Positions 4,385 to 18,830 of a stretch of DNA of 64,000 nucleotides are shown here, piece by piece (the first letter of the stretch is position 1; the number at the start of each line of letters is the position of its first letter). A model generated the notes under the pieces. That model was not told where the DNA came from. It searched no databases and saw nothing but the letters and a program-made list of their open reading frames with translations. The position numbers were made by a program, and so were the translations under genes. Source of the DNA: Marinobacter fonticola (GTDB lineage: Bacteria > Pseudomonadota > Gammaproteobacteria > Pseudomonadales > Oleiphilaceae); assembly GCF_008122265.1 (NCBI RefSeq), contig NZ_CP043042.1, forward strand, positions 3,100,001 through 3,164,000. The letters are read 5' to 3'.

Positions 4385-5362
4385 TCAGCCGACTTTCAGA
4401 ACGACCTTGCCCGTCGCCGTGCGACCGGTCAGTGCATTCAGCGCGCTCACGTAATCTTCGAACGCAAAGGTCTCGCTGATTTTCGGCTTGATCTTGCCCT
4501 CGCTGTAGAGCTTGAGCAGGTCTTTCATGTTCTGGGCGCTGACGTCCGGTTCCATGCGGGTAAAGTTGCCCCAGAATACACCGATCAGCGCGCAGCCCTT
4601 GAGCAGAGTCAGGTTGGCGGGCACTTTGGGGATATCGCCGGCGGCGAAGCCGATGACCAAGTGGCGGCCGTTCCAGGCCATGGCGCGCAGAGCCTGCTCG
4701 GTGAAATCGCCACCTACGGGGTCGTAGATAACGTCCACGCCTTTGTTGTTGGTTAGCTTTTTCACGGTCTCTTTAAGGGGCTCTTCGGCGTAGTTCAGCA
4801 GCTCATCGGCGCCGGCTTCTTTTGCCACTTCCAGCTTCTCGGCACTGCTTGCGGCGGCAATGACATGCGCCCCCATGGCCTTGCCCAATTCCACCGTGGC
4901 CAGGCCAACGCCGCCGCTGGCGCCGAGCACCAATAGGGTTTCGCCCGGCTGGATGTTCGCCCGCTGCTTGAGCGCATGATAGGAGGTACCGTAAACCATG
5001 GTGAAAGCGGCTGCTTCCTCGTCGCTCATGTTATCGGGCACCGGCAGCAGATTGGCCTCGGCTGCGACGATCTCCTCGGCGAAGGCGCCAAAGCCCGTCA
5101 GTCCCATGACGCGGTCACCCGGCTTGAAGCGAGTCACCTTCTCGCCCACGTCCAATACTTCACCCGCCATTTCGCCACCGGGCGAAAAGGGCATGGAGGG
5201 CTTGAGCTGGTATTTGCCCTCGATAATCAGCGTGTCCGGGAAATTCAGGCCAGCCGCTTTGACGCGAACCTTGACGCCGCTACCTTTCGCATCCGGTGAA
5301 TTCACGTCTTCGATAACCAGCGTATCGGCCGGACCATATTCCTTACAGAGAATCGCGCGCAT
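4385..5362 (-). CDS. NADPH:quinone oxidoreductase family protein (medium-chain dehydrogenase/reductase)
   Basis: A 325-residue zinc-independent MDR protein. The N-terminal catalytic fold contains AAGLNFPDTLIIEGKYQ and PGGEMAGEV; the Rossmann part has the nucleotide motif LVLGASGGVGLATVELGKA (about residues 140-160). No structural zinc-binding cysteines are seen, as expected for quinone-reductase-like members. It would reduce quinones or other activated carbonyl or enoyl substrates with NADPH in the cytoplasm. It converges on the acyl-CoA synthetase gene, with the REP-like hairpin between them. An AAAGGGG stretch lies upstream of the ATG. Substrate cannot be told from sequence. Confidence 0.85.
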   Translation of the reverse strand: MRAILCKEYGPADTLVIEDVNSPDAKGSGVKVRVKAAGLNFPDTLIIEGKYQLKPSMPFSPGGEMAGEVLDVGEKVTRFKPGDRVMGLTGFGAFAEEIVAAEANLLPVPDNMSDEEAAAFTMVYGTSYHALKQRANIQPGETLLVLGASGGVGLATVELGKAMGAHVIAAASSAEKLEVAKEAGADELLNYAEEPLKETVKKLTNNKGVDVIYDPVGGDFTEQALRAMAWNGRHLVIGFAAGDIPKVPANLTLLKGCALIGVFWGNFTRMEPDVSAQNMKDLLKLYSEGKIKPKISETFAFEDYVSALNALTGRTATGKVVLKVG

Positions 5363-5576
5363 GGATGACGCCCCTTTGTTGTGTGCATGACAAATTGCCT
5401 TTAGTCATGTCGGGTTGACCAAACAATGAATGGCATCAAGCTAATGCGATTGTAAAAATGAGGCAAATCAATATCAGTTATGCTTCTCCATAAACAGCAG
5501 TCATAGTTAGAGAATAGAAACGACAATGGAATGGAACGATAGAAGAGAATGAGAGGTGTTGGATCGCTAGATGGCG

Positions 5577-11052: not shown

Positions 11053-11382
11053 TCAGGCCGCCATCTGAAAGCACGCCTCGGCACATCTACGGCATGCACT
11101 CGCGCATTCCTTACAGTGATCGTGATCGTGCTTTTCACACTCTTCAGCGCAGGCTTCGCAGATTTGCGCACAGAGTTGGCACATGGCGATTGCGTTTTCA
11201 CTTTCCCGGGCCATGGCGCTAGCGGTGATGCGGCATTGGGCGGCGCAGTCCATATCCAGACGGATGCAACGGGCCATCATCGCTACGTTTTCCTCATTCA
11301 GGCAAGATGCGGCGCAATAATCGCAGATATCGGCACAGCGATTACATTCCGCGATGCACTCGGCATATTTTAGCGTGGACAT
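11053..11382 (-). CDS. csp3: Four-helix-bundle copper-storage protein, Csp3-like
   Basis: A 109-residue protein with 19 cysteines, many in CxxxC or CxxC spacing (AECIAECNRCADICDYC). This pattern is that of the Csp family (formerly DUF326), whose cysteines line a four-helix bundle and bind many Cu(I) ions. No signal peptide or Tat motif is seen from the chosen start, so it is the cytosolic Csp3 type. The start at 11382 is supported by AAGGAGGTC just upstream. A longer reading from 11472 lacks this site. A His-rich stretch (CEKHDHDHC) lies near the C-terminus. It probably protects against copper toxicity or stores copper. Confidence 0.9.
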   Translation of the reverse strand: MSTLKYAECIAECNRCADICDYCAASCLNEENVAMMARCIRLDMDCAAQCRITASAMARESENAIAMCQLCAQICEACAEECEKHDHDHCKECASACRRCAEACFQMAA

Positions 11383-11600
11383 ATCGTTGACCTCCTTATC
11401 GATGTCTAAAGATTTTCTGACGTACCTAGCGAGCTTTCGTGTCGGTATACGCAAGCTTTTATCATCGTGCACTTATCTTGGAGGCCCTCCACTATCCCAG
11501 GTTAAGGATTTGGTTAAATTTCCATCTAAGTCTGAAAAGCCAACAAAGATAAGCATGGGGTGCGGCCGGCGCCGCCCCCCCAGAAAAGCTCGAAGCCAAA

Positions 11601-13691
11601 TCAGAATTGATCTACCGCGGGTTCGCGCTCCCAGTACCGGAGCTTCCTGCAAGCATTGATGAACGTCTTTGCTGAGCTCGGGTCGTCCACGGGAATACAC
11701 CCTTTGTCCAGCATCTTATCGAGGCCTGCGCTTGCGAAAAGCGCGTTTGCCTGGGAGACATAGCCGATGAACTTGCAGTGGGCGAAGGCATCGTTAACGA
11801 AGTCGCGCGCCGTAGCATCTTTCGCCAATGTCTCCACCTCATCATCGGAGGGAATAACCACCACAGCGTCGAACAACACCGATGGCCCACCGTCCAGTTT
11901 TTCATCCGCAGGAATATGACGGCCAACGCTGTCTTTGATGCCACCTATGGTGGGGGCGATCACGGCCATTATCGCGCCTTCGTCTTCGATGGCCTGCTTC
12001 ATGCCATCGATGATTCCGGAATCTGCGCCGTTGGTCAGAAGCAGCCCCACTTTGCGTCCCTTGAAGCTGTCCGGTCCGTTCAACAGGATGCTCAGCTTGG
12101 GCGACTCCTTGAGATCCTGGCGAGTCGGCATGGCCGCCTCTGCGGCCTCGGGCATGTCTTCGAGGCCGAGCCCTTTCGCCACTTGATTGGCCAGGCCCTC
12201 GTCGATGTTGAGTAGATGCGAAACCATGCGCTCGCGGATATCCAATCGCTCGCACTTACTCAGTTCAAAAATGAAGGCATTAGCAATGTGCCGCTGCTCG
12301 ATATCTGTCTGGCTCTTGTAGAACTGCCGTGCCTGACTGTAATGATCGGCAAAGGTCTCGGAACGCACCCGCTGCTTCTCCCCTTCGACATGGGACGGAT
12401 AGGTGGTGAAGCCCCCGTCCGGATTCTCCCTGGGCCCGCTGCCCTCGCCCCAACTATTGGGTTCGTAGTTGGCGCGCCCGGTGGGATTCTGCATCGCCAT
12501 ATGCCCATCCTGCTGGAAGTGGTGCATGGGGCACTTCGGCGCGTTAATCGGTATCTGGGTGAAGTTTGGCCCGCCAAGGCGCTTGAGCTGCGTATCCAGA
12601 TAGGAAAAGTTCCGGCCCTGGAGTAGCGGATCGTCCGACTGGTCGATGCCCGGTACGATATTCTGAGTGCAGAAGGCGACTTGTTCCGTCTCGGCGAAGA
12701 AGTTATCGACCACACGATTGAGTACCAGCTTGCCTACCTTGCGTACCGGTACGTCTTCCTCGGGAATGATCTTGGTGGCGTCAAGCACATCGAAATCGAA
12801 TTTCTCCGCAAACGCCTCGTCGAATATCTGCAGTCCCAGCTCCCACTCGGGATAGTCACCGCGCTGGATGGCGTCCCAGAGATCCCGGCGATGGAAGTCC
12901 GGGTCGGCACCATTGATTTTCAGAGCTTCGTTCCAAACCACGGACTGCAGTCCCTGTTTGGGTTTCCAATGAAACTTCACGAATTTCGCTTCGCCCTGGG
13001 CGTTAACAAAGCGGAAACTATGAACACCGAACCCCTCGATAAACCGGAAGGAACGGGGGATAGCCCGATCCGACATGGTCCACATCAGCATGTGCATACT
13101 TTCAGGCGTTAACGTCGCGAAATCCCAAAAGTTGTCATGCGCGGTCTGCGCCTGGGGAAAAGCCCGGTCCGGCTCCTGCTTCGCGGCGTGGACCAGGTCT
13201 GGAAACTTCATGGCATCCTGAATAAAGAACACCGGGATGTTGTTGCCCACCAAATCCCAATTGCCTTGTTTGGTGTAGAACTTGGTCGCGAAACCGCGTA
13301 CATCTCGCGGTAAATCGAACGACCCCTTGTTGCCCGCGACGGTCGAGAACCTCGTAAACACCGGCGTTTGTTCTCCAGGGCGCTGGAATAGGTCCGCCGA
13401 GGTTATGTCCGATAGGCACTCGTAGTTTTCGAAATAGCCATGGGCGCCATAACCCCGTGCATGGACCACGCGTTCGGGTATGCGCTCGTGATCGAAGTGG
13501 AAGATCTTTTCACGCATGACGTGATCTTCCATGATGGTCGGGCCACGGGCTCCCGCCCGCAGGGAGTTCTGGTCGTCGGATACCGGGCAACCCTGCTGGG
13601 TCGTCAAGGTATGTTTGTCGCCTGTGGCTTCCTGATGATATTCGCCGCCCTTGCCCGCGCGGCCGCCTTGGTATGTGAATCTTTCAGCCAT
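11601..13691 (-). CDS. katE: Catalase HPII, large-subunit clade with C-terminal class-I-amidotransferase-like domain
   Basis: A 696-residue haem catalase that disproportionates hydrogen peroxide. The catalytic histidine lies in ERVVHARG (His77), the distal asparagine in the HDNFWDF region, and the haem-ligand tyrosine in [10 protein letters not shown]. The extra C-terminal ~150 residues (from about [15 protein letters not shown]) are the flavodoxin-like domain specific to large clade-2 catalases. AAAGGAG sits before the ATG. HPII is usually a stationary-phase enzyme; here it stands next to the NHEJ operon and the copper-storage gene, suggesting a stress locus. Confidence 0.95.
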
Positions 13692-14135: not shown

Positions 14136-15233
14136 CTAGCCGGATTGTCCGAGTGCCTCGACCAACTCACGCTTGGACATTTGACTACGACCGGCAATCG
14201 ATTGAGCCTGGGCGCGCTCATAAAGCTCGTCGCGGGATAGCGCTGACAGATTTTCTTCATCCGTGCCGCCCGATTTACGCTTCCCGGACGGGCGGCTTGC
14301 GCTGCTACTACGCCCGTCGGATGCCTTGGCCCGACTACCGCGCTTGGACTGGGGCGCCTCGCTTTTGCCTTGCAGGCGCTCCTTGAGAACCTGCATCAAA
14401 TCCACGACCTGACTTTCGTCTTGATAGCCCTGCTCTCCTTCGGGCAGGCGCACGATGTCCTCGCCGGAGCGCAGTTTCTTGTCGATGCGCTTGAAGACGC
14501 GTTCGGTTTGCCGGTCTGCCAGCAACGCCCGGTCAAGGGTTTTACCCGAAAGCGATTTCATCGCGCGCGTCATCTTGTCGACCTGTTTCGAATCCGCTTG
14601 GGCCAACTCGGGTAGCCCGACATCGGCCGGCGAACGTATTTCGTCCTGGAAGCGCAAAGTCTCCGCCCGGAGCAAGCCTTTTTCGGAGATGATCGCCACG
14701 ATGTATTCCTTGCCGCGCATCACGAACGTGGCCACGCCAGCCCGTTTTTTCTGCGCCATGCTACGAGCCAGCAGGCGGTAAGGTTTGGTTGCGCCGGAGT
14801 TGGGCGTGAGGTAATAACCTCGCTCGAAGAAAACCGGGTTAATGTCGTCTAGCGGCACAAAACGGCTTAAGTCGATCTCGCGAGTTTTTTCCGGTGCTAC
14901 AGCCTCAAGATCGCTGTCTTCGACAATGACGTATTTATCCTTGTCGATGGGATAACCCCGGACCAGGTCCTCGTTTTCGACGACACGCGATTCCTTCTCA
15001 CAGAAATAGCGCCGCCGTAGGGGCGTGCCGTCGCGATCGACCATGTGTAAGGACAGGGGCTTGCTGCGGTTGGCGGGGAACAGGCTGACCGGCAGACTCA
15101 CCAGACCAAAGGCGATGACCCCAGACCAGAACGGGCTAGGTTGGATAGGCCCCGTATCGTTGTCGGCCTTTTTGTCTGTAGTCTTCTCGTCTTTAGCCTC
15201 GTTAGCTTTCCCCTTTCTGCGACTACCGGTCAT
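14136..15233 (-). CDS. ku: Ku DNA-end-binding protein with C-terminal SAP/Rho-N-like domain
   Basis: A 365-residue bacterial Ku. The Ku core starts near residue 33 (SPFWSGVIAFGLVSLPVSLF) and includes GYYLTPNSGATKPYRLLARSM. Ku dimers ring DNA ends and recruit LigD for non-homologous end joining. The basic, Ser/Arg/Lys-rich tail is followed by LSALSRDELYERAQAQSIAG and MSKRELVEALGQS, which resembles a SAP or Rho N-terminal DNA-binding helix pair. The N-terminal ~30 residues are charged and low-complexity. It is the last gene of a four-gene overlapping operon; its ATG overlaps the previous ku stop by 4 bp. Confidence 0.92.
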   Translation of the reverse strand: MTGSRRKGKANEAKDEKTTDKKADNDTGPIQPSPFWSGVIAFGLVSLPVSLFPANRSKPLSLHMVDRDGTPLRRRYFCEKESRVVENEDLVRGYPIDKDKYVIVEDSDLEAVAPEKTREIDLSRFVPLDDINPVFFERGYYLTPNSGATKPYRLLARSMAQKKRAGVATFVMRGKEYIVAIISEKGLLRAETLRFQDEIRSPADVGLPELAQADSKQVDKMTRAMKSLSGKTLDRALLADRQTERVFKRIDKKLRSGEDIVRLPEGEQGYQDESQVVDLMQVLKERLQGKSEAPQSKRGSRAKASDGRSSSASRPSGKRKSGGTDEENLSALSRDELYERAQAQSIAGRSQMSKRELVEALGQSG

Positions 15234-16000
15234 TTTTTCATCCTCTTGAGGCTGGCTTCCAAGGCGCTGGACAGGTCCTCGGAAGGTTCCTTCTTGCGCG
15301 CCGGGGGCTTTTTAACTTTCCCGCCCTTGCGTTTCCGTTCGATCATTTCCAATACCCGCTCACGGTACTCATCGTGATAATCATCGGGCTCGAAAGACGC
15401 ATCCAGCATTCCGATCAGTTCCTTCGCCATATCAAGTTCCCGGCCATCAAGCGTCTTCCCCTCCGGCGCCTTGAGCTGATCGGCAGAAATCACCCGGTCG
15501 GCATAGCGTAAAGTCATCAGCATGGGGTAGCCCTCGTAGAGTTGCAGGGCGCCTACATATTCCTTTTTGCGCATGACCCAGCGGGCCAGCCCTTCTCGAT
15601 CGGCCTTCGATAAGGCTTCGCCCAGTGCCGCGTATGCCTCGTCGTCGCCATCCGGCCCCAGATAGTAAGGGCGGTCGTACCAGCGATGATCGATGACCTT
15701 GGGTGGGTAGAAGCGCACTATTTCAATGTCCCTCGAGGCCTCCGGTTGCAACTCATCCAGCTCGTCGGGATTAAGTAGCACTTCATCACCCTCATCGGTT
15801 CGATAGGCCCGCAGCATGCTATCGCGCTCGACGACATCGCCTGATTCCGCGTTAACCATGGCCTGACGCACAGGCTGATGATCCTTACCGTGCAGCAGCC
15901 GAAAATGGATATTGCGGTCGGATACGGCAGAGTAGAGCTTGACCGGAACCGCAATATCCTTGAACCGCACAGTCCCTTTCCAGATTGCACGTGCGGCCAT
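15230..16000 (-). CDS. ku: Second Ku protein, short form
   Basis: A 256-residue Ku homologue beginning directly with the core (AIWKGTVRFKDIAVPVKLYSA). The family pattern RPYYLGPD and ARWVMRKKEYVGALQ is present. It has a short lysine-rich tail (KRKGGKVKKPPARKKEPS) and lacks the SAP-like domain of the neighbour. The two Ku proteins differ enough that a heterodimer, or division of labour, is possible; bacteria with several ku genes are known. Its start codon shares one base with the stop of the zinc-protein gene upstream (TGATG). Confidence 0.93.
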   Translation of the reverse strand: MAARAIWKGTVRFKDIAVPVKLYSAVSDRNIHFRLLHGKDHQPVRQAMVNAESGDVVERDSMLRAYRTDEGDEVLLNPDELDELQPEASRDIEIVRFYPPKVIDHRWYDRPYYLGPDGDDEAYAALGEALSKADREGLARWVMRKKEYVGALQLYEGYPMLMTLRYADRVISADQLKAPEGKTLDGRELDMAKELIGMLDASFEPDDYHDEYRERVLEMIERKRKGGKVKKPPARKKEPSEDLSSALEASLKRMKK

Positions 16001-16230
16001 CAGCCCTCCTCGGTGCGCGAGCTACGGGACTCGGCGGCACACTCGGGACAAAGCAGGTCGGACGACTGCACCTCGTCAATCACGCAGGTATGGCACACCG
16101 GCCGATCGCAGGCTATGCAGTAGGCCAAGGCCTCGGCATGCCAACTGCCTTCGCAAAAAGGGCAGTACTCGCCACCGGGCGAAAGCCACCAACGCTCATC
16201 TTGGGGGCGTTCTCCTGATTCGGATGTCAT
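16000..16230 (-). CDS. Small eight-cysteine cross-brace zinc protein in the NHEJ operon
   Basis: A 76-residue protein with the pattern C-x2-C-x11-C-x2-C-x4-C-x2-C-x11-C-x2-C (Cys 23, 26, 38, 41, 46, 49, 61, 64). The symmetric spacing fits two interleaved zinc sites, as in RING, FYVE or B-box fingers. A tryptophan pair (WWLSPGGEYC) precedes the first knuckle, and the tails are acidic and polar. It is locked into the operon: the start overlaps the ligD stop by 4 bp and its stop overlaps the ku start by 1 bp. That arrangement argues for a real, translated gene working with Ku and LigD, perhaps as an adaptor. I do not recognise a named family, and function is unknown. Confidence 0.85.
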   Translation of the reverse strand: MTSESGERPQDERWWLSPGGEYCPFCEGSWHAEALAYCIACDRPVCHTCVIDEVQSSDLLCPECAAESRSSRTEEG

Positions 16231-18830
16231 CTGTTCGACTCCAGTTTTTCCAGTGTATTTACCGTCAACGGACGCCGGGCCTGCTCAAAACCCTCCCAGG
16301 GATCGTCTTTCAGTGAACGCAGCCTACGGAACAGGTTTTTGACGGTATAGCGATCCCCGCGCTCTACGCGGGTCACTTCGTCCCATCGCAGAGGCGTCGC
16401 TACCGGCGCGCCCTCCCGGGCGCGGATCGAGTACGACGCTACGCTGGTGGCGCCGCGGCCATTACGTAGGTAGTCGATAAAAATACGCCCCTTGCGGCGG
16501 GCCTTGGCCATGTGGGTGGTCAACAACTGGGGCTGTTCCTGGGCATGGATGTTGGCCACCACGCGGGCGAACTGTTTGATAACCTCCCAATCCGCCTCGG
16601 GTTCGATGGGAACCACCACATGCAACCCCTTGCCGCCGGTGGTTCGCGGGAAACCCGTCAGCCCTGCCCTAGCCAGCCTTTGGCCGAGGTGGTGCACAGT
16701 CTCGGCCAATACGGACCAAGGCACCGAGGGGTCAGGATCGAAGTCGAAGGTCACCGTATCGGGGGTTTCCACGTCCTCTATGCGACTGCCCCATGGGTGC
16801 AGTTCGAGCACCCCGGTTTGCGCCAGGTAGACGAGATCGCGGGCCGTCTCGACGTAAACGAAATCGGAGTCATCACCGGAATTCCCGGCGATGGTGACTT
16901 GCGGCAGCTGGCCGGCCAGTGCACGGCCGGGCCGCTTCTGGAAAAAGCAGTCGCCAGTCCAGCCATCGGGACAACGAACCATGGCAAGCGGACGACGCCC
17001 TACATGGGGCAGCATCCACTCCGCAACGGCGTCCAAATACTGCGCAATCGCCCGTTTGGTCAGACCAACCTCGGGAAAGACGACGCGATCCGCGTGACTC
17101 ACGGCAACACCGGCAATGCGCACGCCCCGAGGGCCGGGAGAGTTCCGGGTTGGCCCTTCAGCCGTCGTCCGGCGTGTGGAGCCTTCGGCTGATTTAGCTT
17201 GCTCGGTGTCTGCGCTATCAACCGAAGGCGCGGTGTCTTGAGTTGTTATTTCGTCTGCAGTCTTGTCGTCGCGCAGCCCACGAAAGACCGGCTGGCGCAA
17301 CACTCCGCGAGCGGAGCGCTGGGCATACTCCACATCAACGACGAGCTCAGGCTGAACCCATTGAGCGCCCTTGCTATCCGGTACCTGTTGCGCAAAAGGG
17401 CGGCGTTCGATACTCAGGCTTTGCAGCCGTTCGCGGAGCATTCCGATCTGGTGTGAGGAGAAACCTGCGCCCACCCGGCCCTGGTATTCAAATCCGGACG
17501 ATCCGAAGGCGCCCAGCAACAGTGAACCGAAACCGGTTCGCGCTCCGGAAGGTGGGGTATAGCCGCCCACGACGAACTCATCCTGCAGCGTGCATTTAGA
17601 CTTTACCCAGCTTTCCTGGCGACCCGGGCGGTAGCGGGCATCGACCTGTTTGGAAATAATGCCTTCAAGGCGCATGTCACAGACTTCGCGCAGGAATCCG
17701 GCGCCGTGCCCCAGAATATGGTCAGAGTAGCGCACGGCGCCGCCCGCTAAATCGGGGCGCGCTTCCAGCACCGCTTTCAGCGCGGCCTTGCGCTCCGTCA
17801 ACGGCGTGCGCATCAGGTTATAGCCATCCAGGTGGAGCAAATCGAACACCTGCAGTACCAGGCCAGCGTCATGCACGGTGCCTCCAACGCCGCCGACCCG
17901 GTCCTGAAGTTTACGGAAACTGGTTGTGCCGTCCTGATCGAAGATCACGATTTCGCCATCAATGATCGCTTCGTCGACGGGTAGCCGGCCAAGCGCGTCG
18001 ACCAATTCGGGAAAGCGATGGGTCCAGTCCTTGCCATTGCGGGTTAACAAGGCGACGTCGCCGAGATCCAGACGCGCCATAAGACGATAACCATCGAACT
18101 TGAGTTCATGCAGCCACTGATCGCCCTTCGGGGGCCGAGGTTTGAGGACCGCCAACTGCGGGGCTGGACGATCAATCAGGGCCTGCTTCCGGGTATCCGG
18201 CAACGCAGCAGGATCGACGGCGGGTTCTTGAAGCTGTGCAGTCCAGACTCGGTTTTTATCGGCTGCAATCTCGTCCATGGAGCGGCCAGACACAATGCTC
18301 AGATCGTCCGGGTCCAGCGGTTGCCTCGCAGGATCAGTGCGTTTGATGAGCAGCCATTGCCGGCGATCCTGGCGGCCCTCACGCGACTTTCCAGCCGACG
18401 ACCCAGCCGACGACGTGCGTACCAGCGACCAGCGGCCGGTCAGTTTGGAACCGTGCAGCTCCAGGTCAATCCGGTCAGCGCTGGGCTTGCCGAGCGGACG
18501 CCAGGTGCCTGTATCCCAAAGCATGACAGTGCCGCCCCCATACTCCTGGCGCGGGATCACACCTTCAAAGTCGCCGTACGCCAGTGGATGGTCTTCAACC
18601 TCAACCGCCAGGCGCTTCTCGCCCCTGGCTAGACTCGGCCCCTTCGGCAGGGCCCAGCTGCGTAAAACACCGGCTTGCTCCAACCGCAAGTCAAAGTGCT
18701 CGTGGCTGGCAGCATGCTTATGCATGACGTAGCGAGCATTCCCTTTCCGGCTTTGCGCAGGCTGGCCCTGCGGCTCCGGCGACCGCTCGAAGTTACGCTT
18801 ATCTCGGTAGGCTTTGAGGGAGTCGGGCAT
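16227..18830 (-). CDS. ligD: Multidomain NHEJ DNA ligase/polymerase LigD (PE-LIG-POL)
   Basis: An 867-residue LigD. Residues ~1-165 are the 3'-phosphoesterase domain, with His39, His45, Asp47, Arg49, His81 and Tyr85 matching the known Pseudomonas active-site set at a constant offset. Residues ~225-530 are the ATP-dependent ligase, with Lys244 in ELKFDGYR as the AMP-accepting residue and EGIISK as motif IV. Residues ~572-860 are the primase-type polymerase with the metal-binding pair Asp696/Asp698 in DFDPDP. The domain order is that of Pseudomonas rather than Mycobacterium. It cleans, fills and seals double-strand breaks with Ku. It is the first gene of the operon ligD - zinc protein - ku - ku. 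Confidence 0.95.
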   Translation of the reverse strand: MPDSLKAYRDKRNFERSPEPQGQPAQSRKGNARYVMHKHAASHEHFDLRLEQAGVLRSWALPKGPSLARGEKRLAVEVEDHPLAYGDFEGVIPRQEYGGGTVMLWDTGTWRPLGKPSADRIDLELHGSKLTGRWSLVRTSSAGSSAGKSREGRQDRRQWLLIKRTDPARQPLDPDDLSIVSGRSMDEIAADKNRVWTAQLQEPAVDPAALPDTRKQALIDRPAPQLAVLKPRPPKGDQWLHELKFDGYRLMARLDLGDVALLTRNGKDWTHRFPELVDALGRLPVDEAIIDGEIVIFDQDGTTSFRKLQDRVGGVGGTVHDAGLVLQVFDLLHLDGYNLMRTPLTERKAALKAVLEARPDLAGGAVRYSDHILGHGAGFLREVCDMRLEGIISKQVDARYRPGRQESWVKSKCTLQDEFVVGGYTPPSGARTGFGSLLLGAFGSSGFEYQGRVGAGFSSHQIGMLRERLQSLSIERRPFAQQVPDSKGAQWVQPELVVDVEYAQRSARGVLRQPVFRGLRDDKTADEITTQDTAPSVDSADTEQAKSAEGSTRRTTAEGPTRNSPGPRGVRIAGVAVSHADRVVFPEVGLTKRAIAQYLDAVAEWMLPHVGRRPLAMVRCPDGWTGDCFFQKRPGRALAGQLPQVTIAGNSGDDSDFVYVETARDLVYLAQTGVLELHPWGSRIEDVETPDTVTFDFDPDPSVPWSVLAETVHHLGQRLARAGLTGFPRTTGGKGLHVVVPIEPEADWEVIKQFARVVANIHAQEQPQLLTTHMAKARRKGRIFIDYLRNGRGATSVASYSIRAREGAPVATPLRWDEVTRVERGDRYTVKNLFRRLRSLKDDPWEGFEQARRPLTVNTLEKLESNR

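What the first reader, a model, noticed from the sequence alone, without database searches (positions are those of the whole stretch)
16000..16230. An eight-cysteine RING/FYVE-like protein locked inside an NHEJ operon
Seen: a 76-residue reading frame with C-x2-C-x11-C-x2-C-x4-C-x2-C-x11-C-x2-C overlaps ligD by 4 bp and ku by 1 bp. The symmetric spacing fits a two-zinc cross-brace. Established: bacterial NHEJ is normally described as needing only Ku and LigD. Inferred: this may be a third component, an adaptor between LigD and the two Ku proteins or a regulator.
Basis: partly seen in the sequence, partly recalled or inferred. Interest (0 to 1): 0.75.

Follow-up and report, generated by a model that had tools for sequence, protein, structure and literature searches.

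The report
Small zinc-type protein in NHEJ operon
A tiny, acidic, eight-cysteine protein of unknown function is encoded between the DNA ligase and Ku genes of a bacterial break-repair operon, and the close relatives that could be placed on genomes sit at the same spot, which suggests an undescribed third part of the repair system.

Summary
In detail: a 76-codon gene (16000-16230, minus strand) with the stated eight-cysteine spacing overlaps ligD by 4 nt and ku1 by 1 nt; ku2 follows. It is a real gene (dN about 0.21, dS 1.4-1.9 against its nearest genome relative) of a family of small acidic proteins; the window protein matches no Pfam or NCBIfam model above cut-off. I found it in 33 distinct genomes of three families of the window's order. 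In 33 of 33 it lies directly upstream of ku1 (or its remnant), in 31 of 33 between ligD and ku1; in the other two ligD has moved and the gene stayed with ku1. It was absent from 20 single-Ku genomes of the order sample and from 9 two-Ku genomes that look like one loss. Fold predictions of moderate confidence point to a FYVE/PHD-type two-zinc cross-brace, but defining residues of RING, FYVE and PHD are not met. Acidity argues against DNA binding. Best reading: a dedicated protein-binding accessory of two-Ku NHEJ, made together with Ku1. Which partner it binds is unresolved: two distance tests pointed different ways. Function and zinc content are untested.

The parts
16000..16230 (-). 76-aa acidic eight-cysteine protein (called zf here)
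16227..18830 (-). ligD: 3'-phosphoesterase, ATP-dependent ligase and primase-polymerase domains, 867 aa
   Evidence: TIGR02776, 626 bits
15230..16000 (-). ku1, 256 aa, basic C-terminal tail
   Evidence: (TIGR02772, 257 bits)
14136..15233 (-). ku2, 365 aa, basic tail ending in a weak Rho_N-like match (E 0.06, under cut-off)
   Evidence: (TIGR02772, 238 bits)

Best explanation
zf is a dedicated accessory protein of a two-Ku bacterial NHEJ system. Shown: a conserved gene under purifying selection, fixed directly 5' of ku1, most often with overlapping stop and start (TGATG), eight conserved cysteines, strongly negative charge. Inferred: the cysteines hold two zinc ions in a FYVE/PHD-type cross-brace; the protein is made together with Ku1 by coupled translation; it binds protein rather than DNA, most likely the Ku1-Ku2 ring or the basic Ku tails, and helps to assemble or stabilise the Ku pair or its hand-over to LigD.
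For: 33 of 33 genome copies directly 5' of ku1 or its remnant, 31 of 33 between ligD and ku1. zf was seen only in Ku-bearing genomes: 6 of 6 in the set of 163, 24 of 24 in 221, 5 of 5 in 390 (Fisher p 1e-9, 2e-24, 9e-7; not corrected for kinship, and the sets share a few genomes). In G494 and G608 ligD lies elsewhere and zf stays with ku1. 21 of 30 scored loci have the 1-nt stop/start overlap with ku1. 57 of 57 distinct homologues in hand are acidic (net -4 to -17), 56 have all eight Cys. The window's flanking genes are shared only with G152 among ten loci tested, while the block itself is kept. FYVE/PHD-like matches. In the lineage lacking zf, Ku1 shows the highest relative rate: 1.40 (1.18-1.62) against POL 1.13 (1.03-1.22).
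Against: Nine two-Ku genomes keep ligD-ku1-ku2 without zf, so it is not needed for every two-Ku system. The rates of all five parts are raised in that lineage and most intervals overlap. Mirror-tree correlation on 31 genomes favours LigD (POL 0.94, LIG 0.93) over Ku1 (0.88) and Ku2 (0.58), partial correlations likewise (0.37, 0.26, 0.11, 0.09). In G608 zf keeps all eight cysteines although ku1 and ku2 are collapsed. Zinc, binding and function are untested; the models reach only mean pLDDT 71-73.
Confidence: 0.5

Rival explanations
1. zf is a brake or switch: an acidic protein that holds Ku off DNA, or keeps the operon's products inactive until zinc or thiol state changes, for example in oxidative stress.
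For: Net charge of -4 to -17 in 57 of 57 against basic Ku tails and LigD (pI 9.5, 9.7 and 8.9); eight thiols; a catalase gene directly downstream in the window and in G152.
Against: The catalase was not found in the fetched stretches around the 9 other loci tested (flanks of only a few kb). Nothing here separates a brake from a helper.
Confidence: 0.27
2. zf is a passenger: its product acts elsewhere, or the reading frame mainly serves translation of ku1.
For: Position and coupled start codons alone would be explained; 9 two-Ku genomes do without it; zf outlives the collapse of ku1 and ku2 in G608.
Against: Purifying selection on the protein sequence (dN/dS about 0.11-0.15) and cysteines and WW kept down to about 30-40% identity; no copy away from ku1 in 33 genomes.
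Confidence: 0.14
3. zf is a DNA-binding zinc finger that recognises break ends.
For: NHEJ context; zinc-finger-like sequence.
Against: All 57 distinct homologues are acidic, 30 of 57 without any lysine.
Confidence: 0.05
4. zf is a RING-type ubiquitin-ligase-like protein.
For: Weak RING-family profile matches.
Against: Ligand spacing is not RING; all matches below Pfam cut-off for the window protein. A ubiquitin-like pathway was not looked for.
Confidence: 0.01

Closest known systems
Two-component bacterial NHEJ (Ku + LigD), operonic form
   Same: LigD with PE, LIG and POL domains and Ku proteins, one operon
   Different: Two Ku paralogues and a further small gene between ligD and ku1
FYVE / FYVE_2 (PF02318) and PHD zinc fingers of eukaryotes
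   Same: C-x2-C-x(n)-C-x2-C-x4-C-x2-C-x(n)-C-x2-C order (FYVE; recalled); best structural matches of the two models
   Different: FYVE lipid-binding residues and the PHD His ligand missing; profile scores of the window protein under cut-off; bacterial, single-domain, acidic
Cysteine module inside large sensor-kinase-type proteins (S. meliloti pSymB, S. fredii, and frames in G410, G495, G446, G785, G1110)
   Same: 32 columns alignable to the zf profile, hhalign probability 92%, pairwise E 5e-7
   Different: Embedded in frames of about 1,050-1,190 aa; the one run on Pfam (L107) is a hybrid histidine kinase (the transporter-like N-terminal half is my reading, no Pfam hit); no ligD or ku in these loci of 3-14 kb; different C-terminal half
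Small eukaryotic NHEJ accessory factors (APLF, XLF, PAXX, CYREN; recalled)
   Same: Small extra proteins that join Ku-ligase systems; a PBZ zinc finger is fused to Ku70 in amoebozoa (passage of PMC11936186)
   Different: No sequence relation tested or claimed

Membership tests
FYVE domain | Eight ligands C-x2-C-x(9-39)-C-x2-C-x4-C-x2-C-x(4-75)-C-x2-C (definition recalled) | tested here: met
   51 of 57 distinct homologues are 2-11-2-4-2-11-2, 5 more differ only in the sixth gap, 1 (decayed locus G037) lacks one Cys
FYVE domain | WxxD, R(R/K)HHCR and RVC motifs for phosphoinositide binding (recalled) | tested here: not met
   Alignment A4, by eye: WWLxxG-type start, no basic HHCR stretch before the third Cys
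FYVE domain | Pfam model score over cut-off | tested here: not met
   FYVE_2 14.3 bits against 27.2 for the window protein
RING finger | C3HC4/C3H2C3 with 2-3 residues between ligands 4 and 5 (recalled) | tested here: not met
   All-Cys, x4 in all 56 scored
PHD finger | C4HC3 with His as ligand 5 (recalled) | tested here: not met
   Cys invariant at that column
Two-zinc cross-brace fold in general | Structure resembling solved cross-brace domains | tested here: inconclusive
Two-zinc cross-brace fold in general | Binds two Zn2+ | not testable with these tools
   needs purified protein
Bacterial NHEJ operon | ku and three-domain ligD adjacent, same strand | tested here: met
Bacterial NHEJ operon | Only ku and ligD as its genes | tested here: not met
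   zf between ligD and ku1 in 31 of 33 zf-bearing genomes

The most novel reading that the evidence does not exclude
zf is a third core subunit of a heterodimeric-Ku bacterial NHEJ machine: a zinc cross-brace protein that binds the Ku1-Ku2 ring and gates LigD recruitment, a bacterial counterpart in role to the small accessory factors of eukaryotic NHEJ, lost once in a lineage whose Ku1 then changed quickly.
Probability: 0.35. Interest if true: 0.82.

Novelty: new variant of a known kind. Interest (0 to 1): 0.6.

Why it matters
The papers seen describe bacterial NHEJ as a two-protein system (abstract openings). A dedicated third gene, fixed beside ku1 in three families of bacteria, gives a small, directly testable handle on how two different bacterial Ku proteins are assembled and controlled, and could matter for moving such NHEJ systems into other hosts.

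Tried and rejected
Families: the window protein has no Pfam match above cut-off and no NCBIfam match; scans of P0001, P0013 and the G445 protein gave no PADLOC match and one weak PHROG match (E 0.055). For the other 35 members of A4, Pfam was run only with E-values, best 6e-5 for B-box in one member; cut-offs were not shown for them.

Viral, phage and plasmid collections: no true relative. The 20 Sinorhizobium plasmid hits (2 of 20 inspected) lie in a sensor-kinase-type protein and were dropped.

Weak genome hits dropped before the counts: 9 (E 1e-3 to 7e-3; one search found no ligD or ku in those loci); 6, of which 3 are the kinase-type module, 2 an N-terminal B-box-like stretch of ~450-aa proteins and G248 a zinc ribbon in a 163-aa frame that looks like PhnA (recalled); G785 and G1110, both the kinase-type module (the script had missed them). 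None of 11 such loci tested carries ligD or ku (loci of 3-14 kb).

Partner inference from distances was tried two ways and gave conflicting hints. Fusions of zf to ku or ligD: none noticed, not searched for systematically. The contexts of 29 of the 33 protein clusters P0001-P0033 could not be seen; only P0001, P0003, P0006 and P0007 match genomes examined. L080 and L081 are the same contigs as G041 and G054 and were not counted again; L082 of that call is not a relative. That genome-contig scan used only the PGSDRQWW stretch, so it could not reach most members.

Papers: searches listed no description of this gene, but long lists were capped (20 of 45, 20 of 52, 12 of 45, 15 of 6,057 shown). 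PMC7719229, PMC10576340 and PMC11936186 were seen only as passages, the others as search listings; the library is open-licence only.

Full report
Observation. The window carries, on the minus strand, ligD (16227-18830), a 76-codon gene here called zf (16000-16230), ku1 (15230-16000) and ku2 (14136-15233), each overlapping the next by 4, 1 and 4 nt. It occurs once in the six frames of the window and in none of 60 mononucleotide shuffles. LigD has the PE, ligase and polymerase domains, and both Ku proteins score far over the Ku_bact cut-off. zf itself has no family above a cut-off: its best Pfam matches (zf-UDP, Dynactin_p62, B-box types, Siva, FYVE_2) score 14-18 bits, and NCBIfam has none.

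Real gene, real family. The window's genome has one copy. A sequence search found 4 proteins (one being the query) and a profile search 31, all 68-83 aa, called hypothetical where named; two more came. Of 57 distinct homologues in hand, 56 keep all eight cysteines, 51 with the identical spacing; all 57 have the WW pair and an Asp after the fourth cysteine; all are acidic (net -4 to -17, pI 4.05-5.24) (start codons of some genome copies are my choice). Between G000 and G152 dN is 0.21 and dS 1.4 to 1.9. G152 shares its contig length and protein with Marinobacter nanhaiticus D15-8W and is in the window's genus, so the window is probably from a relative of that species.

Place in the genome. In the window's family 163 genomes were searched: 6 have zf (E below 1e-9) and 8 have Ku, the 6 being all among the 8. 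In the sample of the order (390 genomes) 5 have zf (E below 1e-15) and 26 have Ku, again all 5 inside. In the family of G445, 221 genomes: 24 zf, 34 Ku, all 24 inside. In the family of G467, 46 genomes: 3 zf, each beside ku1; Ku was not counted over that whole set. Class (203 genomes) and phylum (190) samples added no new bearer; their two extra weak hits are a kinase-type module. Together 33 distinct genomes bear zf. In 33 of 33 zf lies directly upstream of ku1 or, in G037 and G608, its remnant; in 31 of 33 ligD (in G037 its remains) lies directly upstream of zf. The two exceptions, G494 and G608, are of one genus and have ligD elsewhere, in G608 broken; zf stayed with ku1. In the 30 of 31 loci where it could be scored, the zf stop and the ku1 start overlap by 1 nt in 21, the rest being -4 (2), 0 (1), +2 (2), +4 (1), +14 (2) and +30 (1). 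Of five genes flanking the operon in the window, four are found together beside it only in G152 among ten loci tested; a relative of the fifth, cysteine-rich gene lies near it in four others. So the block is kept while its surroundings change.

Absences. In the order sample 20 Ku-bearing genomes without zf have a single Ku match, and one, G390, has ligD-ku1-ku2 without zf. In the family of G445 ten Ku-bearing genomes lack zf: one single-Ku (G548) and nine two-Ku (G390 and eight of genus g100), in which ku1 follows ligD with no zf between. In trees of Ku and of the LigD polymerase domain these nine form one clade with a long stem (0.73 for Ku1, 0.73 for Ku2, 0.58 for the polymerase domain), compatible with a single loss; a gain of zf in the other lineages is not excluded. 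In the window's family the other two Ku genomes are uninformative: in G088 the contig ends inside ku1, and G018 has a different single Ku. In G037 the locus is decaying: ku1 lacks its start, ligD is in pieces, and zf has lost its seventh cysteine. In G608 ku1 and ku2 are collapsed but zf keeps all eight cysteines, a result against strict shared fate.

Mechanism. The charge argues against DNA binding. Fixed association with ku1, coupled start codons and the movement of ligD alone in one genus favour Ku as partner. A relative-rate comparison of the zf-less clade with the zf-bearing genomes of the same family gives Ku1 1.40 (1.18-1.62), PE 1.26 (1.07-1.47; one f43 row only), Ku2 1.25 (1.08-1.43), LIG 1.15 (1.06-1.26), POL 1.13 (1.03-1.22): all raised, Ku1 most, most intervals overlapping. 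Residues conserved in zf-bearing and lost in all zf-less genomes number 6 of 87 (Ku1 core), 8 of 60 (Ku2 core), 5 of 76 (PE), 5 of 100 (LIG) and 3 of 93 (POL). A mirror-tree on 31 genomes instead correlates zf best with POL (0.94) and LIG (0.93), then Ku1 (0.88) and Ku2 (0.58). I therefore commit to 'protein-binding NHEJ accessory, probably acting on Ku' at 0.5 and leave the partner open.

Literature. The papers seen describe bacterial NHEJ as Ku plus LigD (abstract openings). Searches listed no report of this gene; several lists were capped and most subscription papers are not held. A Sir2-like protein has been reported in mycobacterial NHEJ (abstract opening of PMC3102665), so extra factors are not unheard of, but none was seen there as a gene inside the operon.

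Noticed in passing
window 11053-11472 (-) and 11601-13691 (-): A cysteine-rich small protein and a large catalase follow the NHEJ operon; a relative of the cysteine-rich gene also lies within the fetched stretch around the Ku locus in G041, G054, G037 and G018.
   Followed up: partly
L107 5528-8908, L108, L043, L045, L047, L137, L189: A cysteine module resembling zf lies inside large sensor-kinase-type proteins, before the kinase part where that was checked.
   Followed up: partly
L148 (G608) about 4969-5435: The start of ku1 appears joined by deletion to the end of ku2 while zf upstream is still open.
   Followed up: partly
G650 contig C29, 483514-484215: A further Ku-like gene about 35 kb from the operon, whose own ku2 gives only a short match.
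   Followed up: no
L030 (G152): The fad genes, ligD-zf-ku1-ku2, catalase and an UbiB-like gene are in the same order as in the window, at about 89-93% protein identity for the flanks.
   Followed up: yes
L042, L046: About 450-aa proteins with an N-terminal B-box-like cysteine/histidine stretch.
   Followed up: no
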